A stretch of 64,000 bases of DNA, from contig JACPNS010000021.1 of the NCBI GenBank assembly GCA_016185345.1, positions 62,001 through 126,000 on the forward strand, in the 5' to 3' direction. Within the stretch, counting starts at the first letter, position 1. Each line of letters begins with the position of its first letter. Both the position numbers and the translations under genes were made by a program. This DNA comes from Solirubrobacterales bacterium (GTDB lineage Bacteria > Actinomycetota > Thermoleophilia > Solirubrobacterales > JACPNS01). The notes under the pieces were generated by a model. It was not told the DNA's origin. It saw nothing but the letters and a program-made list of their open reading frames with translations, and made no database searches. Below are positions 17,432 to 37,866 of this stretch, one piece after another.

Positions 17432-17437
17432 ACGGCG

Positions 17438-18235: not shown

Positions 18236-18338
18236 CGGTGCCCTATCCCAAAACGCAAAATTGTGCTTGGTTTGAGAAGCGAAGCGTTCGCTTGATCATC
18301 GGGTTTGAATGCGCGATCATTGAAAGGTGGCGTCAGCC

Positions 18339-19379
18339 ATGACGGAGGACAATTTCGGGCCAGGTCAGGATGCGGATCGGGATGATCGGGAGGCCCGCAG
18401 CGAGGATGCTGTGACGGAAGCTCAGAACTATGGGGACGGCGATCGATTTGTCGACCCGCAAACAGGCGAATCTTTTCCGACGGCGCTGCCGCCGGAGCGG
18501 CGACCCGTCGAACCGACCGTCCACCTGGACGAGTTCGGCAACCGCATTCCTCCGAATGCGCCCGGCTATGAGCACGCCGGACCCTACGACTTTCACTCGC
18601 AGACGGTTCGCGATCACGGCGCCCAGCGCAGCGCGATCCAGTTCGTCGACGTGCACAAGGCTTTTGGTCGGAACAAGGTCCTCAACGGCCTGAACCTCGA
18701 CATTCCAGAAGACCAGATCTCGATGATCCTCGGACCGTCAGGTACGGGTAAGTCGGTCTGCATCAAGCACATGGTCGGATTGCTCTACCCCGACCAGGGC
18801 GACGTCCTCGTGCACGGCGAATCAGTTCCCGCAATGGCAGACGACCGGCTCTTTGAGGTGCGCAAGAAATTCGGCGTGCTCTTCCAGGACGGCGCGCTCT
18901 TCGGATCGATGAACCTCTTCGACAACGTGGCCTTCCCGCTGCGTCAACACACCGACAAGTCCGAGGCGGACGTGACGGAGATCGTCAGCCGTCGCCTCCA
19001 GGAGGTCGGACTGGGCAACGACGGCGACAAGATGCCGAACGAGCTCTCTGGCGGAATGCGCAAGCGCGCTGGATTTGCCCGCGCGCTGGTGCTCGACCCA
19101 GACATCGTGCTCTTCGACGAGCCGGACTCAGGCCTCGACCCGGTCCGCACGGCGCTGCTGTGTGACCTGATCCAGGAGATCCACAACGAAAACGGCGGCG
19201 CGTACGTGGTCATCACCCACGACATTCTTTCTGCGCGCCGAGTAGCCGAACACATCGCGCTGCTCTGGAAGGGCCGCATCGTCGACGCCGGCCCGGCTCA
19301 GGAGTTGTTCAACTCCGAGAACCCGTTCGTAAAACAGTTCTTGACGGGCGACGCCGCTGGTCCCTTGGGCATGGAGTAG
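18339..19379 (+). CDS. Mce-associated ABC transporter ATPase (MceG/Mkl type) with acidic N-terminal extension
   Basis: 346 residues. The ATPase core begins near residue 95 (IQFVDVHKAFGRNKVLNGL) and shows Walker A GPSGTGKS, signature LSGGMRKRAGFARAL, Walker B IVLFDEPDSGLD and the switch histidine VITHD. The first 95 residues are acidic, rich in Asp/Glu/Pro and without predicted structure, which is longer than usual for MlaF/Mkl. The ATG at 18339 is preceded by AAAGG; a GTG 12 bp upstream is the alternative. In mycobacteria the Mce ATPase is encoded away from mce loci. Here it lies between the permeases and the MCE genes. Confidence 0.92.
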   Translation: MTEDNFGPGQDADRDDREARSEDAVTEAQNYGDGDRFVDPQTGESFPTALPPERRPVEPTVHLDEFGNRIPPNAPGYEHAGPYDFHSQTVRDHGAQRSAIQFVDVHKAFGRNKVLNGLNLDIPEDQISMILGPSGTGKSVCIKHMVGLLYPDQGDVLVHGESVPAMADDRLFEVRKKFGVLFQDGALFGSMNLFDNVAFPLRQHTDKSEADVTEIVSRRLQEVGLGNDGDKMPNELSGGMRKRAGFARALVLDPDIVLFDEPDSGLDPVRTALLCDLIQEIHNENGGAYVVITHDILSARRVAEHIALLWKGRIVDAGPAQELFNSENPFVKQFLTGDAAGPLGME

Positions 19380-19438
19380 ACCGCAGCAAAGTGAACCGAA
19401 AATCTTGTCAGTCATCGCGGGCCAGTGCGGCCTTCACC

Positions 19439-19460
19439 AGCGCCCCCTCGGAGGGGCGCT
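19439..19460 (+). terminator. GC-rich hairpin between the ATPase and the first MCE gene
   Basis: AGCGCCCC-CTCGGA-GGGGCGCT, a perfect 8-bp stem with 6-nt loop, lies 60 bp after the ATPase stop. No T-run follows, so it is more likely to lower readthrough, or to protect the upstream mRNA, than to be a full terminator. Confidence 0.45.
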
Positions 19461-19512
19461 TGGCGCGTCTACGGGCGGTCAGTCCTGGCCGGCCTCAGGC
19501 GGGCGATTGCGC

Positions 19513-20880
19513 GTGGTAACCAAGCAGCAAAGGCAGATCGCTATAGCGGCACTGGTGGCCGCACTGCTGATCGTCATCTGGCTGGTCATGCAGAGCGGTG
19601 GCTACGTCGTGAACGCACGCTTTGAGACCGGCGGGCAGCTCGTCAAGGGTGCAAATGTGACCGTTGGCGGCAAGGCGATCGGCAAGGTCGAATCGATCAC
19701 GCTGACCGAAGACAATCAGGCCAATGTGAAGATGAAGATCAACGACGACTCGCTTGATCCGCTGCACCGCGGAACTACGGCGACGATCCGTCAGTTCTCA
19801 CTGTCTGGTGTTGCAAACCGATTTGTGGCGCTTGCGCCCGGGCCGAACAACGCCGCGAAGATTCCGAACGAAGGCATCATCGCGACCGACGACACCGAGT
19901 CGCCGGTGGACCTTGACCAGCTGCTGAACAGCTTTACGCCGAAGGTCACCCGGGGCCTCCAGGGATTCATCAAGGGCAGCGCGACGCAGTACAAGGATGA
20001 TCCTTCAACTCCGCTGAATGAGACGACCTACGGAAACCAGGCGCTGCGGTACATCGCTCCGTTCTTTGATGCTGGGGCGCGGCTTGCGGCCTCGGTCGCC
20101 AAAGATGACGAAACACTGGCGTCATTCCTGGTTGTTTCGGACCGTGCGACGACCACGCTTGCTGCTCAAAAGGAGCAGATCAAAGCGATGTTCACGAACT
20201 TGACGAGGTTTACGACGGCCGTTTCCGCGGAGTCGGAAGAGCTTGACAAAGCACTGGCTGTTCTGCCGGAGACGCTGCAACAGGGCACTGTCGCCTTCAG
20301 GCAACTGCGACCAACGTTCGACGCCCTGGAGAACCTGTCCGACAAGTCCGATCCGATCGGTAAGAACGGGGGGGACGGACTCGCGGAATTATTCATCAAA
20401 TTGAAGCCGCTGATTGACAACTCGGAGCCGACCCTCGGCTACCTGCGCGAGCTAGTCAATCAGGGCGGCAAAAACAACGACCTCACCGACCTGTTCGCCG
20501 GCCAACCGTCGCTTACAAAGAAGGCCAAGACCGCGTTCCCCAACTCCACGAGCGCGATGCAGACCGGGCAGATCGTCCTGCAGTTCCTGCGTCCGTACAC
20601 CCCGGAGCTGACCAGCTGGTTCTCGCGCTTTGGACAGATTGCCGCCAACTATGACGCGAACGGCCACTACGTGCGTGTCGCCACGCAATCGGGTGCATTC
20701 AAGCTGAATGGAAGTGGTCAGCTGACCCCGAGTGGAAACAATTCGCTCGATCAGTACGGCAAGACGGGCACTTCTCGATGCCCAGGAACTGGCGCGCAGA
20801 ACGCCGGAGATGGCTCCAACCCGTTTACGGCTGGCGGAACTCTCGACTGTGACCCCTCGATTCAGCTGCCTGGCCCCTAG
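19513..20880 (+). CDS. MCE-family protein 1
   Basis: 455 residues from the GTG at 19513. The frame is open back to 19405, but the family start is the basic-hydrophobic anchor QRQIAIAALVAALLIVIWLV. The MCE domain follows: FETGGQLVKGANVTVGGKAIGKVESITL, then TTATIRQFSLSGVANRFVAL. The C-terminal half is largely helical, as expected for the needle or tunnel part of Mce proteins. Six such proteins in one operon are expected to form a heterohexamer that carries hydrophobic substrates (lipids or sterols) across the periplasm-like space. Confidence 0.88.
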   Translation: MVTKQQRQIAIAALVAALLIVIWLVMQSGGYVVNARFETGGQLVKGANVTVGGKAIGKVESITLTEDNQANVKMKINDDSLDPLHRGTTATIRQFSLSGVANRFVALAPGPNNAAKIPNEGIIATDDTESPVDLDQLLNSFTPKVTRGLQGFIKGSATQYKDDPSTPLNETTYGNQALRYIAPFFDAGARLAASVAKDDETLASFLVVSDRATTTLAAQKEQIKAMFTNLTRFTTAVSAESEELDKALAVLPETLQQGTVAFRQLRPTFDALENLSDKSDPIGKNGGDGLAELFIKLKPLIDNSEPTLGYLRELVNQGGKNNDLTDLFAGQPSLTKKAKTAFPNSTSAMQTGQIVLQFLRPYTPELTSWFSRFGQIAANYDANGHYVRVATQSGAFKLNGSGQLTPSGNNSLDQYGKTGTSRCPGTGAQNAGDGSNPFTAGGTLDCDPSIQLPGP

Positions 20881-20883
20881 GCG

Positions 20884-22278
20884 ATGAGCATGCGAAACCA
20901 GACCTCCGAAATCGTCACAGCAGCGTCGCCGCGCCGTATTTCGGTGCGGGGTCGCCGCGTCATCGCTCTGGCAATCGTCGTCGCCGCCGCAGCGGTCGTC
21001 GTTGTCTCTTCAGTGGGCGCGGGTAACGGCGACGGATACCGGATCCGCGCGGTCTTTGTCAACGCATCGGGGATCACCAAGGGCGCTGATGTGCGCGTGG
21101 CCGGTGCAAACGTCGGCTCGATCACCGGAATCTACGTCGGCAGGAACAACCTCGCGTCCGTGATCCTCGATGTCACGGACCCGGCGTTCCAGCCCTTCTA
21201 TAGCGACGCCAAGTGCCGAATCAGACTCCAGTCACTCATCGGCGAAAAGTTCGTCGACTGCGATCCGGGTATTCCGACGAAACCACCACTCCCAGCGGAC
21301 CCATCGGATGCCGAGCGGGTAATCCTCGGGCCGAGCAAAACCAGTTCTCCGGTCGATCCAGATGAGCTACTCGACGCCATGCGTGAACCGCAACGCGAAC
21401 GTTTCCGGGTGATCATCAACGAGCTCGGCATCACATTGACCGGTCGCGGTCAGGACCTTCAGGACATTCTCAATCGCTTTGACCCAACGTTCTTGAACGT
21501 CAACAAGATTCTCAAAATCCTCGCCGAGGAGAACAAGAATCTCGTTCGCCTTGCTGAGGACGGCGATCGGTCGCTGAAGTCACTGGCCGAGAATCGCGAC
21601 CGTATCGTCGGTCTTTTCAAGAACGCGGACAAAGCTTCCAGGGCGACCAACGCCAAACAGCAGCAGCTTGCCGAGACGCTCGCTCGACTACCTGCGTTCC
21701 TTGACGAACTTGAGAAAACCGCTCCAGTACTGGAAAACTTTGCGAATCAAGCTGCGCCTGTCGCGGCGTCGACCCGCGCTGCGTCCGCTGATCTTTCCCA
21801 ATTCGTTACCGGAACGAAAAAGTTCGTCGATTCCGCCAACCCGGCCCTGAAGCGATTCGGCGTGACAGCAGATGTCTTCCGCGCGCAGATCCCGGCCTTG
21901 CAACCGGTGGCAGAGACGTTGAACACGATTGGTGACAACCGGTCGTCGGTCACGAACTTGAAAAAGCTGCTCAAGAGCTTCGGCGACGATCAGAATGGCT
22001 ACGCGAACCTGGCGTCAATGGCGATTGGGCTCGCGGGAGCAGGCAACGGAAAAAACTCTTTCGGGCACTTCCTGCGTTCGGCCGCGGTGCTTCAGGGGAG
22101 TTGCCTGAACTACGTCCAAACGAGCAACTCGGGATGCATGGCGAATTTCTCCGAGGACCGCTCGGCAACCAACAGCGAACCCTCCGAGAAGCTGACAGCG
22201 CCGCCGACGAAGTCGAGCGCCTCAAGCCTTGCTTCCGATACGGCGGCACTCGACTATTTGCTCGGGGGTGACAACTAG
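20884..22278 (+). CDS. MCE-family protein 2
   Basis: 464 residues. Anchor segment VIALAIVVAAAAVVVVSSVG, then the MCE domain VFVNASGITKGADVRVAGAN with VGSITGIYV and CRIRLQSLIGEKFVDCDPG. A long helical region follows (LTGRGQDLQDILNRFDP to LARLPAFLDELEKTAPV), typical of mycobacterial Mce proteins. It starts 3 bp after the previous stop; an alternative ATG lies two codons on. Its TAG stop shares its G with the GTG of the next gene. Confidence 0.88.
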   Translation: MSMRNQTSEIVTAASPRRISVRGRRVIALAIVVAAAAVVVVSSVGAGNGDGYRIRAVFVNASGITKGADVRVAGANVGSITGIYVGRNNLASVILDVTDPAFQPFYSDAKCRIRLQSLIGEKFVDCDPGIPTKPPLPADPSDAERVILGPSKTSSPVDPDELLDAMREPQRERFRVIINELGITLTGRGQDLQDILNRFDPTFLNVNKILKILAEENKNLVRLAEDGDRSLKSLAENRDRIVGLFKNADKASRATNAKQQQLAETLARLPAFLDELEKTAPVLENFANQAAPVAASTRAASADLSQFVTGTKKFVDSANPALKRFGVTADVFRAQIPALQPVAETLNTIGDNRSSVTNLKKLLKSFGDDQNGYANLASMAIGLAGAGNGKNSFGHFLRSAAVLQGSCLNYVQTSNSGCMANFSEDRSATNSEPSEKLTAPPTKSSASSLASDTAALDYLLGGDN

Positions 22279-23753
22279 TGCGCCGCCAGGGAGTCGCTGA
22301 CAACCCAGTTCTCGTTGGTGCAGGAGCGATCCTCGTGATGCTCGTGATGATCCTGCTCAGCTACAACGCCACGACCGGCCTTCCGTTCGTCCCGACGTAC
22401 AACATCACCGCTGAAATCCCCAACGGGGCGGCCTTGGTTAAGGGCAATGAAGTCCGGATCGGAGGCGCGCGCGTCGGCATCGTCCGATCAATTACCCCGA
22501 TTGAAGAGAACGGTAAGTACCGAGCCCAGATCGCCCTGAAGCTGGACAAGAATATCGGTCCGATTCCCGTCAATTCTGAAGTCGAGGTCCGCCCAAAGTC
22601 TACGATCGGGCTCAAGTATGTTGAATTGACGCTGGGCGACTCCTCGCAAACGATCGCCAACGGCGGAGGACTGCCACTTGCACAATCGACCGTGGCGACT
22701 GAATTCGAGGACCTGCTCAATACTTTCGACAAGCGGGTCCGCGAGGGTAACAAGCGGTCGCTTCAGGAGTTTGGCAACGCGTTTGCCGGCCGCGGAGCGG
22801 ACCTGAACACTGCGTTCGGCGAGCTTGGCCCGCTTTTTCAGAACCTTGAACCAGTCGCCCGGACAATTTCCGACCCGGCTGCCCGCTTGGGCGACTTCAT
22901 AGCCGCGCTTGCACAGGCGGCACGGGACACCGCTGTCACCGGGGACCAAGCAGGTGAGGTGTTTGCGAACGCAGACGTCACTTTTGCCGCATTCGCGGCC
23001 GCATCCGACGGCATCCAGCAGAGCCTTCAGGAATCACCATCGACTCTCGCTGTGCTCACGGAGACTTTTCCTGCCGAGCGCCAGTACTTCCGCCAGCTCA
23101 CTGGCCTGGTCGAGAAGTTCCAACCCGGGGCCCCGTACCTTCCTGCAGTATCGGCCAACCTCGCGGATATCACGCGAAATGGACCTGTGGCGTTTGACAA
23201 GCTCTACAAAACCACGCCGGCATTCAACACGACGTTCACGAAGCTCGGCGCATTTGCAGGAGACCAGCAGGTACGTCTCGGGCTCAACGGCTTGAAGAAC
23301 TTCGTTGTGACGATCAATGCACCGCTGAAGTACATCACTCCGGCGCAGACCACGTGCAACTATTTCGGCCTGTTTGCGCGCAATATCGCGTCGACGGTCT
23401 CATCGCGTGACAACGGAGTTGGCTGGCTGCGATTTGGAATCATTGCTGGCTGGCCTGGTCCTTCGCCGCGAACAAACAGTGAGGTTGGGCCTGCCAGCGG
23501 AATCGCCAACTTCGCTCAACCGAGCCTGGCCAACCAGGACGCGACGGACTTCCTCCAGTCGAATCCATACCCGACCACGGGCCAGAACAACGTCTGTGGT
23601 GCCGGAAACGAAGTCACCAAGGGTAAGAACGTCAACACTGGTGTAGGCACTCTGCCCAAGAGCCCCACGCTCCAGCAGCCAGGCAAAATCAAGAGCGGAA
23701 AGACGACCGAGGACACACAAGCGATCGGCTCTGACCAGGTGCGAACGAAATGA
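22278..23753 (+). CDS. MCE-family protein 3
   Basis: 491 residues, GTG start overlapping the previous TAG (TAGTG). Hydrophobic anchor LVGAGAILVMLVMILLSYNA, MCE domain EIPNGAALVKGNEVRIGGAR, VEVRPKSTIGLKYVELTLG, then a helical domain and a Pro/Asn-rich C-terminal tail (NPYPTTGQNNVCGAGNEV). It lies in the centre of the set of six and overlaps the next gene by 4 bp. Confidence 0.88.
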   Translation: MRRQGVADNPVLVGAGAILVMLVMILLSYNATTGLPFVPTYNITAEIPNGAALVKGNEVRIGGARVGIVRSITPIEENGKYRAQIALKLDKNIGPIPVNSEVEVRPKSTIGLKYVELTLGDSSQTIANGGGLPLAQSTVATEFEDLLNTFDKRVREGNKRSLQEFGNAFAGRGADLNTAFGELGPLFQNLEPVARTISDPAARLGDFIAALAQAARDTAVTGDQAGEVFANADVTFAAFAAASDGIQQSLQESPSTLAVLTETFPAERQYFRQLTGLVEKFQPGAPYLPAVSANLADITRNGPVAFDKLYKTTPAFNTTFTKLGAFAGDQQVRLGLNGLKNFVVTINAPLKYITPAQTTCNYFGLFARNIASTVSSRDNGVGWLRFGIIAGWPGPSPRTNSEVGPASGIANFAQPSLANQDATDFLQSNPYPTTGQNNVCGAGNEVTKGKNVNTGVGTLPKSPTLQQPGKIKSGKTTEDTQAIGSDQVRTK

Positions 23754-25174
23754 CCTTGCACCACGGAGCAAACCAAGGAATGTCGCTGCGTAAGGCCGGC
23801 CTCGTGGGGATCGTCACCATTTCGGTACTCGTGTACTTCGCGTTCTCGAAAAACATCCCGTTCACCAATGGCTACCAGGTAACTGCCTACTTCACGAATG
23901 CGGCGAACATTCAGCCCAAGGCGCAAGTGCGCATCGCTGGCGTGAAGGTCGGCACGGTTGCGAAGGTCGAGCGCGGAGACGGTTCGACAACGAAGGTCGT
24001 CATGAGTCTGGACGAAAAGGCCCTGCCGATAAGACGGGACGCCGCCGCCCGAATCCGGTTCCGCATCTTCCTTGAGGGAAACCCGTTCGTCGACCTCTCC
24101 CCAGGTACTCCAGGTTCGCCAGAGATCAAATCCGGCGGTTCGATTCCGGTTGCCCAGACCGCTGGACCTGTGCAGTTGGACCAGGTGCTGAGCGCGGTGA
24201 ACAGCGACGCTCGCAAAGGTCTTGAGAACGTTTTCACCGAAATCGGCACGGCGCTCAACACCAAGGGCACCGCAGAAGAAAACAAGACGCAGGACAACGA
24301 AGTCAAGGATTTGACAGGGGCGCAGGCCCTGAACAGGGCATTCCGCTATGGCCCTGAAGGATTCAAGGGCGGTGCCCGAATCCTCGACGCACTGATCGGC
24401 TACAACGACAATGATCAGCTGACGATTCTCCGCGGATTCCGGGACTTCAACACCGCGATCAATGATCGCGAGACGCAGATTGTGCCCCTGATCGCAGACT
24501 TCGCAACCACGATGGGCGCTTTTGCCGACGATGAGCAGGCACTGCGCCAGGCGACTGCGCAGTTTTCGCGGCTCGCCTACAGCTCACTCCCGACTCTGGT
24601 TCAGCTCAACCGGCTGCTGCCCCAGCTCACGCGCTGGTCGAACACGATCGCACCGAATCTCGACGAGATCCCGGCCACGGTTCGAGCCGCCTACCCGTGG
24701 ATCGAGCAGACCAACCTCTTGTTCGGCAGAGACGAGCTGGGTGGCACGGCTCCACTGGCTCAATCGACTGTCGAGAACTTCGCCAAGACCCAAGCCGCGT
24801 CGCAAAGTCTGCTGCCGCAGCTGGACAACATCTCGAAATGCTGGAACAAGAACTGGTTCCCAACCCTCAACTCGGTTGTGCCCGATGGATCGAACACCTC
24901 CGGCAAGGAGAATTACAAGGAATTCTGGTACTCGCTGGTCGGCTTCAACAGTTCGGCACAGAACTTCAATGCCAACGGCCCATACTTGAGACTTGGAGCC
25001 GGGTCGGACTCGGAGGTGAAGACGCCCTCAAAAACTTTGACCGGCAATGCAGCGCTCCCGGAAACCGGCGTGAATCCGTTGCTGCCAGCCAAGAATCCGG
25101 TGGTCCAGACTTCGACACCGTGTTTCAAGAACACGAGACCAAACCTTGCGCCGACAAAGGGGAGCACCCCGTAG
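23750..25174 (+). CDS. MCE-family protein 4
   Basis: 474 residues. Anchor LRKAGLVGIVTISVLVYFAF; MCE domain YFTNAANIQPKAQVRIAGVK with VGTVAKVERG and AARIRFRIFLEGNPFVDLSPG. The helical region ends in a long polar tail with several prolines. ATG overlaps the previous stop (ATGA), and its TAG overlaps the next GTG. Confidence 0.88.
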   Translation: MTLHHGANQGMSLRKAGLVGIVTISVLVYFAFSKNIPFTNGYQVTAYFTNAANIQPKAQVRIAGVKVGTVAKVERGDGSTTKVVMSLDEKALPIRRDAAARIRFRIFLEGNPFVDLSPGTPGSPEIKSGGSIPVAQTAGPVQLDQVLSAVNSDARKGLENVFTEIGTALNTKGTAEENKTQDNEVKDLTGAQALNRAFRYGPEGFKGGARILDALIGYNDNDQLTILRGFRDFNTAINDRETQIVPLIADFATTMGAFADDEQALRQATAQFSRLAYSSLPTLVQLNRLLPQLTRWSNTIAPNLDEIPATVRAAYPWIEQTNLLFGRDELGGTAPLAQSTVENFAKTQAASQSLLPQLDNISKCWNKNWFPTLNSVVPDGSNTSGKENYKEFWYSLVGFNSSAQNFNANGPYLRLGAGSDSEVKTPSKTLTGNAALPETGVNPLLPAKNPVVQTSTPCFKNTRPNLAPTKGSTP

Positions 25175-26493
25175 TGCATGGTCTACGCAAATCCCTTAAG
25201 CGTTACGGCGTGCACCTTGCTGCGATCGTAATTCTCGTCATTGCGTCGCTCGGAATTGCGGGGTACATACTGTCGAACCAACGCCTGTACCTACCGGCCT
25301 GGGTGCCGGTGGTCGGCACCGATTTCTACGTTGTGAACGCCCAGTTCACTAGTGCTCAGGCCGTCACACCCGGACAGGGTCAGACGGTCAACATAGCCGG
25401 GGTGCCCGTTGGCGAGATCGGAAACGTCACGCTGAAGAACGGTTCCGCAAACGTCGAGCTCAAGATACGACGCGCGCACTCGCCGATCTACAAAAACGCG
25501 ACGATGCTCCTGCGCCCGAAGACGCCGCTCTCTGACATGTACATCGACATGAAGCCCGGAAGCCCGAGCGCAGGCAAGATCGAGGAGGGCGGGACCGTTC
25601 CCCAGGCGAACACCAAGCCAACCGTGAACTTTGATGAGTTCCTCTCGGTTCTCGACGCAGACACTCGGGACTACCTCCAAAATCTCCTGGCCGCCGCGGG
25701 GCAGGGTCTTGACGGTCAAGCGAGCAACCTCCGACAGGGATTGAAGCGTTTCCCGACCACCGGCAAGTACGGGACTCGGATTGTCAAGCAACTTCAGACC
25801 CGCCGCAAGAACATCAAACGGGCGATTACAAATCTTGCCCTCCTGGCCAAGGCGCTGGGTGACAACTCAGACATCTTTGCCTCGTTGATCGACTCATCGA
25901 GCGTGACTTTCCGAACTTGGGCGAGCCAGCAAGAATCAATCCGACAGATCATTCAAAAGGCCCCCGCCGCGTTCGGTGGGACTGCAGACGCTGTGGAAGC
26001 GGCGCAGCCAGTCGTCGAAGACACAGCGGTGGCGTTCAGAAATCTTCAGCCGCTCGCAAAGGATTTGGGCATCTCGCTCAAGAGTCTGCGTCCCTTTTTC
26101 CGCGATCAGACGAAGGTCACTCGCGAGCAGTTCCGACCGCTGGCGCGTGAGTCCAAACCGCTGCTGGAACGGCTCAACCCAGCGGCTTCGAATCTCGCCA
26201 AGTTGACACCGGATGCGACAGCGGCGACCAAGTCCTTCAACAATCTTCTGAATATTGTGGGATACAACCCCAAGGGATCTGAAGAGGGTTACCTCTACTG
26301 GCTCTCTTGGTTCAACCACATCTCGAGCTCGAGTTACAACCGACAGGATGCCAATGGCATTCTCGGTGCGGGGGCGATCGTCGGAAGTGACTGTGACTTC
26401 GCCGCGACGAATGCTCCGCTCAGAGGTGGAAATGCGATGCTTCGACTCGTGGTTGGTCTTGCCGATCTTCCGGTCGGAAAGGTGTGCCGGTAG
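25174..26493 (+). CDS. MCE-family protein 5
   Basis: 439 residues from the GTG at 25174, chosen because it overlaps the previous TAG like its neighbours and gives the family anchor (HLAAIVILVIASLGIAGYIL). The frame is open much further upstream, but that lies inside the previous gene. MCE domain: AQFTSAQAVTPGQGQTVNIA, VPVGEIGNVTLKNG and MLLRPKTPLSDMYIDMKPG. I see no lipobox, although in mycobacterial sets one member is a lipoprotein. Confidence 0.87.
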   Translation: MHGLRKSLKRYGVHLAAIVILVIASLGIAGYILSNQRLYLPAWVPVVGTDFYVVNAQFTSAQAVTPGQGQTVNIAGVPVGEIGNVTLKNGSANVELKIRRAHSPIYKNATMLLRPKTPLSDMYIDMKPGSPSAGKIEEGGTVPQANTKPTVNFDEFLSVLDADTRDYLQNLLAAAGQGLDGQASNLRQGLKRFPTTGKYGTRIVKQLQTRRKNIKRAITNLALLAKALGDNSDIFASLIDSSSVTFRTWASQQESIRQIIQKAPAAFGGTADAVEAAQPVVEDTAVAFRNLQPLAKDLGISLKSLRPFFRDQTKVTREQFRPLARESKPLLERLNPAASNLAKLTPDATAATKSFNNLLNIVGYNPKGSEEGYLYWLSWFNHISSSSYNRQDANGILGAGAIVGSDCDFAATNAPLRGGNAMLRLVVGLADLPVGKVCR

Positions 26494-28079
26494 TGATCAA
26501 GCGCGCACCAAGTCCGGCTCAACTGATCTCGATGATCGCGTTCGCTTTCTCATGCTTTGCGCTGATTCTTTTCCTCTGGGTTTCGTTTGGGGGGCCGGTG
26601 CCGCTGAAGCCCCAGGGCTATCGGGTGAACGTCACCTTCAGCGAGGCTGTTCAGCTCGCGACCGAGGCCGACGTGCGGATTTCGGGCGTTCCGGTCGGAA
26701 AAGTAAAGAAGGTCAAGCCAGAGCAGGGTCGTACTGAGGCGACGCTTGAGATCCAGCCACGCTACGCCCCGCTTCCCAACGACGTGAAAGCGATCCTTCG
26801 AAGCAAGACTCTTCTGGGCGAGACTTTTGTCGAACTGTCGCCCGGCACCGATGGCACGTCGACGATTCCCGAGGGCGGTTCGATTTCGGCCGCCCAGGTG
26901 TCGAATCAGGTTCAACTGGACGAGGTGATTCGAACATTTGATCCGGTCACTCGTCGCGCTTTCGGCAACTGGCTCATCGGGCAGTCCGACGCAGTCAAGG
27001 GCAGCGGCGATCAGTTGAATCAGGCGTTTGGTGTGCTTCCGATGTTCTTCACGGACACCAACAGTCTGATGAGCACTTTGCGCCGTCAGGACAAGGCTTT
27101 GTCGCGATTGTTCGCGAACACCGCGGACATTTTCGAGGCAATCGACAGTCGCCCGGGACAGCTGACCCAGCTGATTCTGACATCCAATCGGCTCCTGCGC
27201 GTAACGGCAAGCCGGAGTCAACAACTTACCGACACGTTCAACAGATTCCCGGAGTTTCTCCGCCAAATTCGCGAGACGACCAAGCAGTTCCAGGACTTCT
27301 CCGACGGCACTCAAGAGCTGATCGCCAATTCCGGTGAATTTGCCGACGCCTCGTCGCCGATCATGAAGAAGTCGGTCAGAGTTACAAACGACGCCCGTCT
27401 ACTCGTCAACAGCCTCGAGCCGATGCTGGACAAGGCCGATTCGGGACTGCCGGCGACCAATCAGTTCCTGGACCTCGCCAGACCAACGATCGCTCAGCTC
27501 GACCCATTCTTGGCCAACCTGAATCCGGTGCTTCAGTTCGTCGGCGAGTATAAGCGCGAGTTGACTGCGTTTGCGGCGAACGATGCCGCCGCCTCGCAAG
27601 CACAGTTCACCGCTGCGACTCCGAACGTCGGAAGCTCAAACTGGGGTCACTATCTCCGCACTTTCATCACACTTTCCCCGGACAATCTGGCGTACTACCC
27701 GAAGAAGACGACGAAAACGCGATCAAATGCGTATCCGGTCCCAGGTTGGTACGACCGACTGGCACAGGGGCTCCAGGTCTTTGACTCGGGCGCGTGCGGC
27801 ACAATTCCGGTCCCTGCGCTCGACCCGGACATAACGCTTTATCCCGACAAATGGGCGCGACTGCTCACGGATATCAATCAAATCGCCTATGCCGGCGACT
27901 ACACAGCTAACCCGACTGCGCCGGTAGGTGCGTCTTCGGCGACGGCGAACCTCGCCCAAAGCCCGAGCAACGCCGCGCAGCTCCCCGCTCCGAACTGCGA
28001 CCAGCAAACCGCCATGTCGTTCCAGGGCCAATCGCTCCAGTTCCCGCAGGTAAACGAATCCTCGAACGCGAATCCCTAG
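26493..28079 (+). CDS. MCE-family protein 6
   Basis: 528 residues from the GTG at 26493 (TAGTG overlap with the previous stop); a GTG three codons earlier is possible. Anchor ISMIAFAFSCFALILFLWVS, MCE domain TFSEAVQLATEADVRISGVP, VGKVKKVKPEQG and AILRSKTLLGETFVELSPGT. A long coiled/helical domain and a Gln/Asn/Ser-rich tail follow. It is the last of the six; the RND protein begins 37 bp later. Confidence 0.88.
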   Translation: MIKRAPSPAQLISMIAFAFSCFALILFLWVSFGGPVPLKPQGYRVNVTFSEAVQLATEADVRISGVPVGKVKKVKPEQGRTEATLEIQPRYAPLPNDVKAILRSKTLLGETFVELSPGTDGTSTIPEGGSISAAQVSNQVQLDEVIRTFDPVTRRAFGNWLIGQSDAVKGSGDQLNQAFGVLPMFFTDTNSLMSTLRRQDKALSRLFANTADIFEAIDSRPGQLTQLILTSNRLLRVTASRSQQLTDTFNRFPEFLRQIRETTKQFQDFSDGTQELIANSGEFADASSPIMKKSVRVTNDARLLVNSLEPMLDKADSGLPATNQFLDLARPTIAQLDPFLANLNPVLQFVGEYKRELTAFAANDAAASQAQFTAATPNVGSSNWGHYLRTFITLSPDNLAYYPKKTTKTRSNAYPVPGWYDRLAQGLQVFDSGACGTIPVPALDPDITLYPDKWARLLTDINQIAYAGDYTANPTAPVGASSATANLAQSPSNAAQLPAPNCDQQTAMSFQGQSLQFPQVNESSNANP

Positions 28080-28116
28080 GCCGCTGGCCTGAAATACCGG
28101 CACCTCCGCACACGCC

Positions 28117-30660
28117 GTGAACCTTCCAGACTTTTACCGTCGCGCCACCGAGCGAGCTGCGCGCAGCTCTTTGAAGAAGCCGCCGATCGTGATTGCGATC
28201 GCCGGTCTGCTTGCGGTTGGCGCGGCATTGCTCGCGCTGAATCTCACGCCTGACACCGGCGTCGAGTCGATCACCGGCACAAAATCCGAGACCTACAAAT
28301 CCACCCAGGTCTGGGCCAAGAACTTCGGTGGCGATCCAATCGTCGTTGTTGCCAAGGGCAAAGTCGCAGAGCTGGCCCTGGGCCCGGATCTTGGCGTGAT
28401 GCTCGGCCTCGAGGGTTGTCTCTCGGGAAAGATCCCGACGAAGGCGCTCGCCGCCCAACCCAAGGTCTGCAAAGAGATCGCGAAGCTCAAACCGGCGGTC
28501 GCGGTCTATGGGCCCGGCACGTTCGTGAACACTGCCGTGATCTCAATTCAAGAGACGATCACAAAACTTTCCAAGCAGGCTCTCAAGCAGGGCAAAGAGG
28601 CCGGCAAGGCCGCGGCTGAAGTCGCGCGCCGTTCAGGCAAGGGCAAGCAGGCGCAGCAGAAGGCCCGCAAGGCAGCTGACGATGCAACTCGTCTTCAGCT
28701 TCTCACGTACGCGCTCAAGCTTGGAACGCAGTACAACCTTGGCATTGGCAGCCAGCCGAGCCTGAACAACCCCGAGTTCATCGCCCGCCTGATCTTTGAT
28801 CCGATCAACGGCTCGGACGAGCCAAAAGGCAAATGGTCCTACATCTTCCCGAGCAAGAATGCAGCGATCATCCAGGTTCGCCTTCGCCCGGGCCTCTCGT
28901 CTGCGCAGCGCGCAGAAGCCGTCGACCTGGTCAAGCGCGCGACGGCCGACAACAAGTACGCCCTCGCAAAGGGTCAGTACTTCGTGACCGGCGCTCCGGT
29001 GGTGCTGGCCGAGGTCGAGGATTCGATCCAGCGCGCGATCGTCATCCTGCTGATCGCCGCGCTGATCGTCATGGCGATCGCACTGCTCGTCGTCTTCCCG
29101 GCGGAGCTTCGCCTGCTTCCGTTGATGCTCGCTCTGATGGCAGCGGCTGGCACCTACGGTTTGCTCGCGCTCACTGGATCATCGATCGGCGTAGGGGCGG
29201 TGGCGGTTTTGCCGGTCCTTGTTGGCCTTGCCGTTGACTACGCGATTCAGTTCCACGCGCGGGCCGATCGGGCCATGCAATCTGGCGCTAGTCCGCCGGA
29301 GGCGGTCATGCAGGCTGCGACCAGCGGAGGCCCGCCTGTGCTCGCGGCAGCGACCGCGACGATCGCCGCGCTCCTGGCCCTGATTCTCAGCCCAATCCCG
29401 CTGATCCGCGGCTTCGGACTTCTACTCGTGATCGGCGTCGCGCTGGCGATTGTCATCGTGCTCACCGCTGGCTTCGCAACTCTCGGTTGGGCCGGCGGCG
29501 CGTCAAAGCGCACCAAGCGCCGTCAGCCAGCCGAAACCGTCGCGGGGTGGATGCGGCTCAGAAAACTCTTCAACCGCACAGCCGCGAACCCGCGCAAGAC
29601 CGTCCAAGTCGCGCTTGCCGTTGCGCTGGTCGGCTGGGTCGCTGGCCTTCTCTCGCCGGTGACAACCGACATCCAGCAGCTCGTTCCCGGAAACCTCGGA
29701 GCCGTAGAAGACGCCAGAGAATTCCAGAAGCTTTCCGGCACGAGCGGCACGGTGGACGTACTTGTCCAGTCGAAGGATGTGACCGATCCGAAGGCCGTCA
29801 AGTGGATGATCGATTTCCAGAAGGCAGCGCTCGTCAAGGCCGGCTACAAGGGCGAGGCTCCGACCTGCGCCAAGTCAGAGCTCTGCCCGGCGCTCTCGCT
29901 CGCCGGTCTCTTCGAGGGGCAGAAGCTGACTCAGGCCAACGTACGCCGGACACTCACCCAGGTCGGCGACTTCTCCCGCGGGGCAGTCACGCCCGACCGC
30001 AAGATGGCGACGATCGCATTCGGCCTGCGCGAGGAAGCGCTGAACGATCAGAAGAAATCGATCGACCAGTTGCGCGACCGCATCGAGGACAAACCACCGC
30101 CAGCGGGAACCACGGCAACTGTCGTCGGCCTGAACGCGCAGGCGGCCGACGCGAGCGGTGCGCTCAGCAATCCCTTCAGGCGTCTGTTGATGGCGCTCGT
30201 CGCGTTGGGCCTCCTTCTGCTGGTCGTGCGAGGCGTCTCGGCCACGTGGCGCAAGTCCTACCCGCCAGTGCTTTCAGTTGCCGCGGCAGGCGGAATCTCC
30301 GCGCTCCTGCTTTTTATCCTTCGCATCGATCTGAACCCGATGTCCGCCGCGCTCGGCGTCTTTATCATCGCTATTGCGGGCGAATTCACGTTGCTGATCC
30401 ATATGCAGTACCTGCGTGAACGCAAGGACTCGGCGCAGATCGAAGTGATCGAAGCTTTCCGCCGGGCCTACAAGACGATCGGTCCAGCAGTCTTCGCCTC
30501 CGGCGTGACCGCCATCGCCGGCTTCGCCGCCCTGGCAGTCAGCGACATCAACATGCTGCGCGGCTTTGCGATCGTCGCAGTGGTCGACCTCGCGGTTGCG
30601 CTGCTCAGCACCGTCGTGCTGCTGCCCGCGATCACGGCCTGGCTCGAAGAAGAGAAATGA
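28117..30660 (+). CDS. MMPL/RND-superfamily transporter at the end of the Mce operon
   Basis: 847 residues from GTG. Two-fold repeat of an RND half: TM1 (about 25-45), a large extracytoplasmic domain, then a block of TM helices with LPVLVGLAVDYAIQFHARADRAM; the second half repeats this (LLFILRIDLNPMSAALGVFIIAIAGEFTLLIH). The layout resembles MmpL/HpnN-type lipid transporters, which use the proton gradient. Position behind the MCE genes suggests that it hands lipid to, or takes it from, the Mce complex. Gly/Lys-rich stretch KQGKEAGKAAAEVARRSGKG lies in the first outer domain. Its stop overlaps the next gene by 4 bp (ATGA). Confidence 0.88.
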   Translation: MNLPDFYRRATERAARSSLKKPPIVIAIAGLLAVGAALLALNLTPDTGVESITGTKSETYKSTQVWAKNFGGDPIVVVAKGKVAELALGPDLGVMLGLEGCLSGKIPTKALAAQPKVCKEIAKLKPAVAVYGPGTFVNTAVISIQETITKLSKQALKQGKEAGKAAAEVARRSGKGKQAQQKARKAADDATRLQLLTYALKLGTQYNLGIGSQPSLNNPEFIARLIFDPINGSDEPKGKWSYIFPSKNAAIIQVRLRPGLSSAQRAEAVDLVKRATADNKYALAKGQYFVTGAPVVLAEVEDSIQRAIVILLIAALIVMAIALLVVFPAELRLLPLMLALMAAAGTYGLLALTGSSIGVGAVAVLPVLVGLAVDYAIQFHARADRAMQSGASPPEAVMQAATSGGPPVLAAATATIAALLALILSPIPLIRGFGLLLVIGVALAIVIVLTAGFATLGWAGGASKRTKRRQPAETVAGWMRLRKLFNRTAANPRKTVQVALAVALVGWVAGLLSPVTTDIQQLVPGNLGAVEDAREFQKLSGTSGTVDVLVQSKDVTDPKAVKWMIDFQKAALVKAGYKGEAPTCAKSELCPALSLAGLFEGQKLTQANVRRTLTQVGDFSRGAVTPDRKMATIAFGLREEALNDQKKSIDQLRDRIEDKPPPAGTTATVVGLNAQAADASGALSNPFRRLLMALVALGLLLLVVRGVSATWRKSYPPVLSVAAAGGISALLLFILRIDLNPMSAALGVFIIAIAGEFTLLIHMQYLRERKDSAQIEVIEAFRRAYKTIGPAVFASGVTAIAGFAALAVSDINMLRGFAIVAVVDLAVALLSTVVLLPAITAWLEEEK

Positions 30661-33686: not shown

Positions 33687-34979
33687 CTAGGTGCCGGATT
33701 TGGTCATGGCGGGGTGTTTGGCTGCCACGGCCAGGATGGACTCGATCGCCCGATCCAGGTGTGCGCGATCATGTGTCGCCATTACGCTCGTACGCAGTAA
33801 CGCAGCACCACGTGGCACCGCCGGGTACATCGCCACGTTCGCATAGAGCCCGAGGTCGTAGAGCTCCTTCCAAACCAAGCCAGCCTCCCAGTCCTCGCCG
33901 ACCACAATCGGGACGATCGGCGTGTAGGGCTTCATCCCGTAACACGCGCCCAGCTCCGTGCCGGGGTCCACAACGCGGATTCCAGCATCGTTCAGCTCGG
34001 TCCAGAGGTATTCGGCATTTTCGAGCAGGCGCGCCATCAGGGCCTTGCCATCGTCCGTCTTGGCGATCTTCACAGCAGCAAGCGCGGATCCGATCGCAGC
34101 GGGCACCGCGCTGGCGGTAAAGAGAAACGACCGAGCATTCAGCCGCAGGTAGTCAACGATGTCGGCGTCGCCGGCGATAAATCCACCGCAGCTCGCCAAA
34201 GACTTCGAAAAAGTCCCCATCCGGAGGTCGACATCATCCTCGATGCCAAGCAGTTCGCTGGCCCCGACGCCGCGAGCCCCCAACACACCAACGCCATGCG
34301 CCTCGTCGACCATCAGACGCGCGCCATAAGACTTCGTGAGCTCAGCAATCCGCGGCAGATCGGCAATGTCGCCTTCCATCGAGTAGACGCCGTCCACGAC
34401 CACGAGGACGCCGCCGCCGTCGGTCTGAGCGCGGTCCAACATCGACTCGAGCTTGTCCAGTCGGCCGTGACGGTAAGGGCGGACCTTCGCGCCAGAGAGC
34501 TGGATGCCGTCGAGCAATGAAGCGTGGTCGCCAGCGTCACAAATGACGGTGTCGCCGGCCTGGAGCATCGCGCTCAGAACGCCGACGTTCGCCTGGTACC
34601 CGGTGGTGAAAACAATCGAGTCGCCGGTTCCGTACCACTCGGCGATTTCTCGCTCAAGCTCGGTGTGGATGTCGATAGTGCCGTTCAGAAGGCGCGAACC
34701 CGTAAGCGCCGTGCCGTACTTCTCGAGCGCGTCGCGCGCGCCCCGAATCACCCGCTCGTCCCCAGTCAGCCCGAGGTAGTTGTTAGAGCCGAGCATCACG
34801 CGCTCTTTGCCCTCCATCCGCACGACTGGGCCGGCTGGCCCTTCGAGCAGACGGAAGAACGGCAGCATGTCGTGCTCGCGTGCAGCAGCGATGATCGCGG
34901 CACGCTCGTGATTGCGAGCGCGCTCGAAGAGGTCTACCGCCGGACCGGTATGGGCAGGTTGTGTACTTGTAGAGTCCAC
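33687..34979 (-). CDS. Alpha-oxoamine synthase, probably serine palmitoyltransferase type
   Basis: 430 residues, PLP-dependent fold type I. Visible: MLGSNNYLGLTGDERVIRGA, YGTALTGSRLLNGTIDIHTE, DAGDHASLLDGIQLSGA, LMVDEAHGVGVLGARGVG and the PLP-lysine segment MGTFSKSLASCGGFIAGD. The family condenses an amino acid with an acyl-CoA or acyl-ACP (BioF, KBL, HemA, SPT). The long N-terminal segment (FERARNHERAAIIAAAREHD, then LPFFRLLEG) and the FSKSLAS-GGF pattern recall bacterial serine palmitoyltransferases more than BioF, and no biotin genes lie nearby. The ATG lies only 3 bp from the divergent GNAT gene's start, so promoters must lie inside the genes. Confidence 0.8.
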   Translation of the reverse strand: MDSTSTQPAHTGPAVDLFERARNHERAAIIAAAREHDMLPFFRLLEGPAGPVVRMEGKERVMLGSNNYLGLTGDERVIRGARDALEKYGTALTGSRLLNGTIDIHTELEREIAEWYGTGDSIVFTTGYQANVGVLSAMLQAGDTVICDAGDHASLLDGIQLSGAKVRPYRHGRLDKLESMLDRAQTDGGGVLVVVDGVYSMEGDIADLPRIAELTKSYGARLMVDEAHGVGVLGARGVGASELLGIEDDVDLRMGTFSKSLASCGGFIAGDADIVDYLRLNARSFLFTASAVPAAIGSALAAVKIAKTDDGKALMARLLENAEYLWTELNDAGIRVVDPGTELGACYGMKPYTPIVPIVVGEDWEAGLVWKELYDLGLYANVAMYPAVPRGAALLRTSVMATHDRAHLDRAIESILAVAAKHPAMTKSGT

Positions 34980-34982
34980 CGC

Positions 34983-36110
34983 GTGAGCGATCCTATCGAC
35001 GTCTCGGCGGTACGCGGCAAAGGTGATCTGAAGACCTTCGTCGACTTCCCGTACGAGCTATACGAAAAGTCAAGCAACTGGGTTCCGCCCTTGAAGATGG
35101 ACATCAAGGACCAGCTCAACCAGAAGAAGAATCCATGGTTCGAGCATGCCGAGGCCGAGTTCTTTCTGGCGCGGCGAGGAGGCAAGGTCGTCGGCCGCAT
35201 CAGCGCCCACGTCGACCGGAATTTCAACGAGTTCCAAGGCAATGACTGGGGCCTGTTCGGCTGGTTTGAGTGCATCGACGACGAGGCAGTCGCGACCGCC
35301 TTGTATGACCGCGCAGGCGCATGGTTGAAGGACCGAGGTCGTGACCGCATGGTCGGGCCGTTCAGCTACACCACCAACGACGAGTGCGGCGTCCTGATCG
35401 ATGGGTTTGAGATCGCACCGGCGATTCTGGAACCGTGGAACTACGCCTACTACCCAGGTCTTTTCGACGGCGCAGGCTTCGAGAAGGCGATGGATCTCCT
35501 GATGTACAAGATGGAGATCGCGGACAAGGAAAAGGTTCGCCCGGCGGTCCACATCGCCGCCGGACGGGTCGATGAGTCGAGCTACAGGTTCAAGCGATTC
35601 TCGCGGCTGACGCTGAACTCGGATGTCGATCGCTTCCTGGACATCTACAACGAGTCGTGGGAGAAGAACTGGGGCTTCGTGCCGCTGACCGAGAAGGAAG
35701 TGCGACACTACGCAAAGACCCTGCTTCCGGTGCTCGACAAGAACTGGGCATTTGTGATCATCGGGTCCGACGGAGACAACGCCGGCGCCGCGCTGACGCT
35801 TCCCGACTACAACCAGGTTTTGAAACGGCTCGACGGCCGCCTGCTGCCATTTGGCTGGGTGAAGTTCCTCTGGTATCGCCGAAAGATTGACCGCATCCGG
35901 GTCTTCGCGCTTGGCGTCAAGCCGAAATACCGCACAACGGGGCTGGCAGCAAAGCTCTACATCGAACACCTCGATGCGGCAGAGCGCACGGGAGTCGTCG
36001 GCGGAACGATGGGGTGGATCCTGGAGAACAACAAGCCGATGAACAAGTCGGCTGAAGCGCTTGGCGCGAGCGTGATCAAGCGGTTTCGGCTCTACGAGCG
36101 GATGCTGTAG
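34983..36110 (+). CDS. GNAT-fold acyltransferase, candidate bacterial ceramide synthase
   Basis: 375 residues from the GTG at 34983; the open frame extends far upstream but there runs antisense to the neighbouring gene. Visible: WVPPLKMDIKDQLN, NPWFEHAEAEFFLARRGGKV, VGRISAHVDRNFNEF, WGLFGWFECIDDEAVATALY, MVGPFSYTTNDECGVLIDGF, and a C-terminal acetyl-CoA-site-like region VFALGVKPKYRTTGLAAKLY. The pattern fits the large GNAT-like family to which the Caulobacter ceramide synthase bCerS belongs, as far as I recall it. Together with the divergent SPT-like gene this suggests N-acylation of a sphingoid base; a different acyl acceptor is possible. Confidence 0.65.
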   Translation: MSDPIDVSAVRGKGDLKTFVDFPYELYEKSSNWVPPLKMDIKDQLNQKKNPWFEHAEAEFFLARRGGKVVGRISAHVDRNFNEFQGNDWGLFGWFECIDDEAVATALYDRAGAWLKDRGRDRMVGPFSYTTNDECGVLIDGFEIAPAILEPWNYAYYPGLFDGAGFEKAMDLLMYKMEIADKEKVRPAVHIAAGRVDESSYRFKRFSRLTLNSDVDRFLDIYNESWEKNWGFVPLTEKEVRHYAKTLLPVLDKNWAFVIIGSDGDNAGAALTLPDYNQVLKRLDGRLLPFGWVKFLWYRRKIDRIRVFALGVKPKYRTTGLAAKLYIEHLDAAERTGVVGGTMGWILENNKPMNKSAEALGASVIKRFRLYERML

Positions 36111-36156: not shown

Positions 36157-36561
36157 ATGGCTTTCTCATCACGATTTGGGCGCGCGAGCGCCGTCCACGA
36201 GGCCCCGGAAGTCTCCGAGCAGCCCACGGGTGAAGAGATCGTGATTGACGCCGAGGCGACAGAGGTCGCCGAGGCCCCGAGCAGCTCTCCGATTCGCCGT
36301 GCTTCTGCGGTGCCCGAGGCGACCGACACTCACGCGGTGAGCAAGCGGTCAGAGCGGGAAATTGCCGTTCGAAACGTGGCCGTTGCCACTGCCGGTGGCC
36401 TGGTCGCCGGTGCGGCAACGATCGCCGTGGCGGCCGTCGCGAAGTCCGCCGCCAAAAACGCCGCTGCGCCCACACCGGGCCTCTCGCGCCGACGCAAGAA
36501 GGACATCATGCAGTCGCAATCCTTCTTGGTTGACGTACATCTGCTCAAGCCCGGCCGCTAA
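36157..36561 (+). CDS. Hypothetical protein with acidic N-terminus and one membrane segment
   Basis: 134 residues. An acidic, Pro/Ser-rich N-terminal half contains a short internal repeat (GRASAVHEAPEV and RRASAVPEATDT). A hydrophobic stretch AVATAGGLVAGAATIAVAAVA follows basic residues, then a basic segment and the C-terminal motif SQSFLVDVHLLKPGR. No family recognised. It may be co-transcribed with the GNAT gene 46 bp upstream. A weak CCGC/GCGG hairpin with six T follows the stop. Confidence 0.6.
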   Translation: MAFSSRFGRASAVHEAPEVSEQPTGEEIVIDAEATEVAEAPSSSPIRRASAVPEATDTHAVSKRSEREIAVRNVAVATAGGLVAGAATIAVAAVAKSAAKNAAAPTPGLSRRRKKDIMQSQSFLVDVHLLKPGR

Positions 36562-36576: not shown

Positions 36577-37866
36577 TTACTTCACCCGGCGCGTTGCGAT
36601 GCTGCGTGACGCCTTGCCGTCGGGGGACCAGCTGGTCACCGTGGTGCGAAGTCTTGCGCCCACGAGGATCTTTCCGATCGAGGTCAGCTTGACCGAGCGC
36701 TGACCCGCGAAGAGGGTGTAACCCGCGTAGGCGATCAGCTTCTTGCCAAAACGGATCTCGACGGTTCCTGCACACATCGCGGTGCCACTCGCGCGGCAGA
36801 CGACTGGCACGCGGAAGTAGCGACCCTTGCGAGTGATGGCTCCCTTGCCGAGTGTGGCTCGACGAGCGCGGATCGCCGGATCGACCAGCGAGTCGCTGCC
36901 GGCAGATCCGTCGCTCCCCGATGATCCAGTTGCGCCCGTCGCGCCGCCAGTTCCAGTCGCACCGGTGGCTCCGCCGTCACCGGTAGCTCCAGTGGGACCA
37001 TTGGCGGCCACGGCTGGTGTGGTGCTCGAAACGTTGTCGATGAAGTATCCGTAACCCATCAGCGCTGCGGAATCCCCGCCCGCGTCAAACGAAGTGCGAA
37101 AGAGCATCGAGTCGACCGTCGGCACTTCGCTCGGGACCTGGCGGAAGTAGTCCTCCCAGCTGTGCACGCCACTTGGCGGGGTCACGTCGTTGCCGTCGAT
37201 CCTGAGCGTCACGACGTCGTTGCTAGGGCCGTCCACGAAGACGAGTTTCATCGTGACGCGGTGGGGGACGCTGTTGTCAAGCGTTGTCACGGGATGCGTC
37301 GTGAATGCTGGGTCGCCTGCGTGGTAGTCGCTCCAAGACACCTCGATGCCGCTCGGCGTGTCCACAAATCGCAGATTCCCCATGCGCGCGCCATCGCCGC
37401 GGTCAGGGGCCACTGCGAGGAAGAGTCCCGGCTGGTGCACGCCCGGTTTCGCGCTCGCGATCGTGAATGATCCCTGGAACATGTTCTGGCGCTCACCGCC
37501 GGACTTTCCGAGCGACTCGGCGCCGGTCTCGCCGGCCTCGTTCGGCGTGGACGGGCTGAAGGTCTGGTTGCCGAAACCGCCGCTGAACTGCCCATTGCTG
37601 ATGCGTAGGGCGCGCTGACCGAAGGCGTTGCTGTAGGCGTAGGTAGGAGCAGGGATGACCGACGAGAGGTTCGTTACGAAGTGATCCAGGTACCCGCCGG
37701 CAGCGCCGGCGCTCTCCCAGCCGAGGACGTTGTCAATCGTCCCGGTCGAGTAGTTGGGCGCTTCGATCGAGGACGTGACCGTGTCTGCGCCCGCGAGGGT
37801 CGGAACGGCGAATATGGATACGAGCGCCGCAATGAGTGCAGCGCGGCCAACCTTGACACGAGTCAT
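36577..37866 (-). CDS. Secreted protein with jelly-roll-like domain and collagen-like linker
   Basis: 429 residues with a signal peptide (RAALIAALVSIFAVPTLAGA). The first 270 residues look like a beta-sandwich (LamG/concanavalin-like: SIEAPNYSTGTIDNVLGW, DNSVPHRVTMKLVF). Residues about 285-322 are Gly-X-X triplets (GPTGATGDGGATGATG), a collagen-like spacer. A C-terminal all-beta domain with a probable disulfide (VVCRASGTAMCAGTVEIRF) follows. A surface or cell-wall role is likely; the ligand is unknown. Confidence 0.7.
   Translation of the reverse strand: MTRVKVGRAALIAALVSIFAVPTLAGADTVTSSIEAPNYSTGTIDNVLGWESAGAAGGYLDHFVTNLSSVIPAPTYAYSNAFGQRALRISNGQFSGGFGNQTFSPSTPNEAGETGAESLGKSGGERQNMFQGSFTIASAKPGVHQPGLFLAVAPDRGDGARMGNLRFVDTPSGIEVSWSDYHAGDPAFTTHPVTTLDNSVPHRVTMKLVFVDGPSNDVVTLRIDGNDVTPPSGVHSWEDYFRQVPSEVPTVDSMLFRTSFDAGGDSAALMGYGYFIDNVSSTTPAVAANGPTGATGDGGATGATGTGGATGATGSSGSDGSAGSDSLVDPAIRARRATLGKGAITRKGRYFRVPVVCRASGTAMCAGTVEIRFGKKLIAYAGYTLFAGQRSVKLTSIGKILVGARLRTTVTSWSPDGKASRSIATRRVK

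What the first reader, a model, noticed from the sequence alone, without database searches (positions are those of the whole stretch)
33687..36110. Divergent SPT-like and GNAT-fold genes: possible sphingolipid (ceramide) synthesis in an actinomycete
Seen: an alpha-oxoamine synthase with the FSKSLAS-GGF PLP segment and a 375-residue GNAT-like protein start 3 bp apart on opposite strands. Known: bacterial ceramide synthesis in Caulobacter uses Spt plus a GNAT-fold ceramide synthase, bCerS. Inference: this pair makes and N-acylates a sphingoid-type base. A third enzyme (CerR-type reductase) is not in the window. Sphingolipids are rare in Actinobacteria.
Basis: partly seen in the sequence, partly recalled or inferred. 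Interest (0 to 1): 0.7.

Follow-up and report, generated by a model that had tools for sequence, protein, structure and literature searches.

The report
Order-wide ceramide-synthesis genes in Solirubrobacterales
Two back-to-back genes in an actinobacterium encode the first enzymes for making ceramide-type lipids, and nearly every member of its order (but none of its sister orders) carries them with a conserved, uncharacterised small membrane protein next door, so a whole bacterial order probably makes lipids thought to be rare in its phylum.

Summary
The synthase falls inside a 100/100 serine palmitoyltransferase (SPT) clade with the solved Sphingobacterium and Sphingomonas SPTs, outside BioF/KBL/ALAS; the genome has a separate BioF. 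The GNAT protein belongs to the CC_1154/YghO (bacterial ceramide synthase, CerS) family; relatives in many phyla sit beside an SPT-like synthase and a CerR-type reductase. In Solirubrobacterales SPT occurs in 144 and CerS in 145 of 151 genomes; 101 have them adjacent, always divergent. CerS is absent from 15 genomes of sister orders. Two additions: (1) a single-TM protein (36157-36561, C-terminal SFLVDVHLLK motif) is found in 135/151 genomes (0/146 in sister orders) and stays beside SPT in 18 of 24 genomes where SPT and CerS are apart (the other 6 may be contig breaks); (2) a homologue of yeast ceramide fatty-acid hydroxylase SCS7 occurs in 131/151, directly beside CerS in 12, but not in the window's genus. 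No CerR-type reductase was recognised in the host, so the last step is unassigned. Ceramide production remains inferred; no lipid data exist here.

The parts
33687..34979 (-). Serine palmitoyltransferase-like alpha-oxoamine synthase (Spt), 430 aa; PLP Lys259, His152, Asp225, His228 and Arg396 at the positions of the SPT active-site residues
   Evidence: NCBIfam SPT models 388/372 bits against bioF 338 (below the equivalog cut-offs); PDB best 3A2B SPT 329 bits against KBL 225, cysteate acyltransferase 218, BioF 170; SPT clade 100/100; residues aligned to 3A2B/2JGT
34179..34220 (-). PLP-lysine segment MGTFSKSLASCGGF; differs from the solved Sphingobacterium SPT (MGTFSKSLASLGGF) by one residue
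34983..36110 (+). Tandem-GNAT N-acyltransferase, bacterial ceramide synthase family (CerS/bCerS; E. coli YghO family), 375 aa
   Evidence: 35% identity over 99% to E. coli YghO, the CC_1154 counterpart according to PMC9386255; family linked to SPT and CerR across phyla; tree; model
34980..34982 (.). 3-bp gap between the two predicted GTG starts; divergent arrangement conserved across the order
36157..36561 (+). Small protein, 134 aa, one predicted TM segment followed by a basic patch and a conserved C-terminal motif; companion of Spt and CerS, function unknown
   Evidence: 135/151 order genomes, 50/53 in the order against 0/146 in other orders of the class, beside Spt in 18 of 24 genomes where Spt and CerS are apart
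36376..36438 (+). Predicted single TM segment of the small protein (VAVATAGGLVAGAATIAVAAV)
   Evidence: Kyte-Doolittle 1.94 over 19 residues
36514..36549 (+). C-terminal motif SQSFLVDVHLLK (S, F, V, D, V, H and L invariant in alignment A5)

Best explanation
The pair encodes the first two committed steps of bacterial (dihydro)ceramide synthesis. Step 1 (strongly inferred): the synthase condenses L-serine with a long-chain acyl thioester to 3-oxo-sphinganine. No dedicated acyl carrier protein or acyl-ACP synthetase is seen beside it, so acyl-CoA is the likelier donor. Step 2 (strongly inferred): the tandem-GNAT protein transfers a second acyl chain to the amino group, giving 3-oxo-dihydroceramide. 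Step 3 (unassigned): an unlinked reductase that is not a recognisable CerR makes dihydroceramide. In most of the order, but not in the window's genus, an SCS7/FA2H-like enzyme probably hydroxylates the N-acyl chain. The small single-TM protein 36157-36561 most likely works with Spt at the membrane, for example as anchor or activator (hypothesis). Shown here: family membership, conserved catalytic residues, order-wide co-occurrence and conserved divergent linkage. Not shown: any enzyme activity or lipid.
For: SPT: the tree places the window synthase and all Solirubrobacterales copies inside a 44-row 100/100 clade with 3A2B and 2JGT, with BioF/KBL/ALAS outside; catalytic His, Asp, His, Lys and the SPT-type NGT, GTFSKS and MATH motifs are conserved; a separate BioF with bioD/bioA neighbours is in the same genome. 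CerS: 35% identity over 99% to YghO; locus L050 reproduces the published E. coli aasR-cerR-acpR-spt + yghO cluster (PMC9386255); an SPT-like synthase lies next to CerS in most of 80 named loci, often with an SDR; grouped with the Proteobacterial CerS rows at 100/95. Linkage and co-occurrence. SCS7 homologue: PDB 4ZR1 2.7e-30, 131/151 genomes, 19-114 bp from CerS in 12.
Against: No CerR-type reductase: the best own-genome SDRs lack the C-terminal W-x-C-D signature of CerRs from linked clusters, and none of 20 order neighbourhoods has one. NCBIfam scores stay below the SPT equivalog cut-offs (388 against 640). The window's genus lacks the SCS7 homologue. The main polar lipid reported for Conexibacter woesei is phosphatidylinositol, with no mention of sphingolipids (PMC3035278). 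The amino-acid substrate could be other than serine.
Confidence: 0.82

Rival explanations
1. The pair makes an N-acylated long-chain amine that is not a classical ceramide: the synthase uses alanine, glycine or cysteate instead of serine (1-deoxy-ceramides or sulfonolipids) and the GNAT protein N-acylates that base.
For: Alpha-oxoamine synthases of one fold differ in amino-acid choice; scores are below the curated SPT cut-offs; no CerR; a cysteate acyltransferase scores 218 bits.
Against: The window protein scores 329 bits to the solved Sphingobacterium SPT against 218 to the solved cysteate enzyme and carries SPT motifs.
Confidence: 0.12
2. The pathway stops at 3-oxo-ceramide or feeds a different lipid or signal, because the reductase is truly missing.
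For: No CerR recognised in a 96.7% complete genome or in the examined SDRs of 30 relatives.
Against: Many other SDR-family proteins in the genome could serve (12 hits); spt is often not co-localised with cerR elsewhere (PMC11334938).
Confidence: 0.1
3. The synthase is BioF or KBL (biotin or threonine metabolism) and the GNAT neighbour is an unrelated acetyltransferase.
For: General family resemblance; 331-338 bits to the BioF and BioF/Kbl models.
Against: Excluded from BioF/KBL in the tree; the host has its own BioF next to bioD and bioA; conserved linkage to a CerS-family gene.
Confidence: 0.02

Closest known systems
Ceramide synthesis genes of Caulobacter crescentus (spt CC_1162, cerR CC_1164, cerS CC_1154) and E. 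coli B (yghO cluster)
   Same: Homologous Spt and CerS families; CerS rows of Proteobacteria (including E. coli YghO) group with the Solirubrobacterales CerS (100/95).
   Different: Here spt and cerS are divergent neighbours; no linked cerR, acpR or aasR; no CerR recognised; an extra small TM protein; the SPT itself lies outside the Proteobacterial SPT group.
SPT of Sphingobacterium multivorum (PDB 3A2B)
   Same: Closest solved relative, same catalytic residues and GTFSKSLAS motif.
   Different: Insert of several residues before TPIVPI in the window's genus; forms its own order-specific clade.
Rubrobacter radiotolerans and Streptomyces sp. NBC_01001 plasmid clusters
   Same: Actinomycetota with Spt + CerS-family GNAT.
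   Different: Tandem Spt-CerS-SDR operons with a CerR-type SDR, on plasmids; not sister to the Solirubrobacterales genes.
Eukaryotic small SPT subunits (ssSPT, Tsc3) and yeast SCS7
   Same: A small one-TM protein tied to Spt, and an SCS7 homologue (PDB 4ZR1, 2.7e-30), occur in the order.
   Different: No sequence relation between the small protein and ssSPT/Tsc3 was tested; this is analogy from general knowledge. The SCS7 homologue is absent from the window's genus.

Membership tests
Serine palmitoyltransferase | Clusters with characterised SPTs rather than BioF/KBL/ALAS | tested here: met
   100/100 clade with 3A2B and 2JGT
Serine palmitoyltransferase | PLP lysine, stacking His, Asp/His, carboxylate Arg and GTFSKS motif | tested here: met
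Serine palmitoyltransferase | Score above a curated NCBIfam SPT equivalog cut-off | tested here: not met
   388 of 640, 372 of 500 and 293 of 670 bits; those models cover other clades (Bacteroidota, beta- and alpha-proteobacteria), so it is called SPT-like by phylogeny, not a member of those equivalogs
Serine palmitoyltransferase | Serine + long-chain acyl thioester activity | not testable with these tools
   no assay
Bacterial ceramide synthase (CerS/bCerS, CC_1154/YghO) | Full-length homology to a family member | tested here: met
   35% identity over 99% to E. coli YghO, listed with CC_1154 in PMC9386255; Caulobacter CC_1154 itself was not compared
Bacterial ceramide synthase (CerS/bCerS, CC_1154/YghO) | Genomic association with spt | tested here: met
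   101/144 adjacent in the order; many phyla
Bacterial ceramide synthase (CerS/bCerS, CC_1154/YghO) | GNAT fold without TM segments | tested here: met
   tandem GNAT model pLDDT 93, PDB matches; hydropathy maximum 0.88
Bacterial ceramide synthase (CerS/bCerS, CC_1154/YghO) | N-acylation of a sphingoid base | not testable with these tools
   no assay
Complete Caulobacter-type ceramide pathway | CerR-type SDR present | tested here: not met
   no SDR with the CerR C-terminal signature in G000 or in the SDR loci examined from relatives
8-amino-7-oxononanoate synthase (BioF) | Clusters with BioF, next to biotin genes | tested here: not met

The most novel reading that the evidence does not exclude
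The order has its own variant of bacterial sphingolipid synthesis: a divergent spt/cerS locus with a dedicated small transmembrane protein that is a prokaryotic functional analogue of the eukaryotic small SPT subunits (recruiting or activating the otherwise soluble bacterial SPT at the membrane), and a reductase unrelated to CerR.
Probability: 0.25. Interest if true: 0.75.

Novelty: new variant of a known kind. Interest (0 to 1): 0.6.

Why it matters
Sphingolipids are described as present in many Gram-negative and only smaller groups of Gram-positive bacteria (PMC11087976). Here the gene pair is a core trait of an entire actinobacterial order with cultured members, so the claim can be checked by lipidomics. 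The locus also exposes a conserved small membrane protein that co-occurs with Spt and CerS, and an SCS7-type hydroxylase beside CerS in a dozen genomes, both useful leads on how bacterial sphingolipids are made and modified. It poses a concrete question: which enzyme replaces CerR.

Tried and rejected
BioF/KBL/ALAS identity of the synthase: rejected by tree, scores and the host's own BioF. Mis-assignment of the GNAT protein to mycothiol synthase or Eis-type tandem GNATs: only remote fold matches at 9-14% identity. CerR in the host: profiles from 5 and then 29 linked CerRs gave only SDRs lacking the C-terminal signature; the best, C5:183336, ends without it. A third enzyme as the conserved downstream gene: family 7 after CerS looks by eye like a DNA glycosylase, not a reductase. 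PDB sequence search with the GNAT protein gave only chance hits. The original bCerS paper is not held. Paper searches found no report on sphingolipids in Thermoleophilia, within an open-licence library only.

Full report
Observation. The two genes are as described. The synthase is 33687-34979 (-), 430 aa; the GNAT protein is 34983-36110 (+), 375 aa. The PLP segment is MGTFSKSLASCGGF with Lys259. Alignments to relatives begin after the first ~8 residues of the synthase and the median gap in adjacent relatives is 38 bp, so the exact 3-bp spacing may reflect start choice.

Host. The window lies in contig C21 of a 2.43-Mb, 22-contig, 96.7% complete genome. The nearest named record is a Thermoleophilaceae MAG (94% identity in the GNAT protein); other close hits are Solirubrobacterales and Patulibacter. 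I take the order to be Solirubrobacterales, class Thermoleophilia (inference).

Synthase. NCBIfam ranks two SPT models first (388, 372 bits), then bioF (338), all below the curated equivalog cut-offs. The best solved relative is Sphingobacterium SPT (329 bits), against Sphingomonas SPT 259, KBL 225, cysteate acyltransferase 218 and BioF 170. In a 54-row tree the window and eight order relatives form a 100/100 clade inside a 100/100 SPT clade of 44 rows that includes both solved SPTs; BioF, KBL and ALAS lie outside. The catalytic residues and SPT-type motifs are conserved. The same genome has a separate BioF beside bioD and bioA.

GNAT protein. It is 35% identical over 99% of its length to E. 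coli YghO, which PMC9386255 lists as the counterpart of Caulobacter CC_1154, the N-acyltransferase needed for ceramide (PMC11324152). Plasmid records show homologues in recognisable clusters: Rubrobacter (synthase, GNAT, SDR), Streptomyces, E. coli (acyl-AMP ligase, SDR, ACP, synthase, YghO), Sphingomonas, Diaphorobacter, Aureispira. Among 80 named loci from many phyla most have an SPT-like synthase near it, often with a CerR-like SDR. In the tree, Solirubrobacterales proteins form a 100/100 clade, and with one further actinobacterial sequence they are sister to the Proteobacterial CerS rows (17 rows together, 100/95). The AlphaFold model (pLDDT 93, pTM 0.90) is a tandem GNAT.

Distribution. 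In 151 genomes of the order CerS is found in 145 and SPT in 144. Of the 144, 101 have them within 400 bp and 11 within 6 kb, all divergent; 27 have them far apart or on different contigs; 5 lack CerS. Across 247 genomes of the phylum CerS homologues occur in 30, including all 7 of the order but none of 15 from other orders of the class. SPT homologues of 42% identity or more are confined to the order and two other families, apart from one 42% match in a further family whose status was not examined. The gene neighbourhood (Mce/MMPL genes, H2TH protein, NMT1-type ABC transporter, CoxE/MoxR-type genes) is conserved across the order, which suggests vertical inheritance.

Small protein. 36157-36561 encodes 134 aa with an acidic N-terminus, one predicted TM segment, a basic patch and a C-terminal motif around SFLVDVHLL. 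It is found in 135 of 151 order genomes, generally once, and in 50 of 53 order genomes against 0 of 146 other genomes of the class. Of the 27 genomes with SPT and CerS apart or on different contigs, the small protein was found in 24. In 18 of these it sits 66-204 bp from SPT, divergent from it, in place of CerS; in the other 6 it lies beside CerS while SPT is on a different contig, which may be assembly breaks. The 18 cases fall in four genera, so the tie to SPT has outlived several relocations. A role as SPT anchor or activator is my inference.

Hydroxylase. An SCS7 homologue (only PDB matches: ceramide fatty acid hydroxylase SCS7, 2.7e-30) occurs in 131 of 151 order genomes and lies 19-114 bp from CerS in 12. 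The window's genus lacks it.

Reductase. CerRs from linked clusters share a C-terminal W-x-C-D signature. Profiles of 5 and 29 CerRs found only SDRs without it in the host; relatives gave stronger SDR scores, but the C-termini examined do not carry the full signature. None of 20 order neighbourhoods has an SDR hit. CerR can be unlinked or replaced elsewhere (PMC11334938), so this leaves step 3 open without refuting the pathway.

Judgement. What is new is the order-wide, divergent arrangement, the small protein, the SCS7-type hydroxylase and the missing CerR. Ceramide synthesis in bacteria, including some Gram-positive groups, is already known (PMC11087976), so this is a new variant of a known kind.

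Noticed in passing
window 16616-30660: An Mce-type lipid ABC transport operon (two MlaE permeases, an ATPase, six MlaD/Mce proteins) followed by an MMPL-family transporter lies upstream; the Mce/MMPL end is conserved beside the SPT locus across the order. Whether it moves sphingolipids is untested.
   Followed up: partly
window 36577-37866: A 429-aa protein with a collagen-like GATGxxG stretch and no Pfam match, found in only one other of 20 order loci (L059).
   Followed up: no
L047:4704-8071: Rubrobacter radiotolerans carries a complete Spt-CerS-SDR operon on its 191-kb plasmid, next to an LTA synthase family gene; another actinobacterial candidate for ceramides.
   Followed up: partly
L088-L090 (family f48 of the phylum survey): A further actinobacterial family with 1.8-Mb genomes has an SPT homologue (44-45%) and a CerS homologue about 4 kb apart, without a CerR-like SDR nearby.
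   Followed up: no
L062-L077, neighbourhood family 7 (e.g. L068:10930-11985): A gene that looks like a DNA glycosylase follows CerS in 14 of 20 order loci but not in the window's genus.
   Followed up: no
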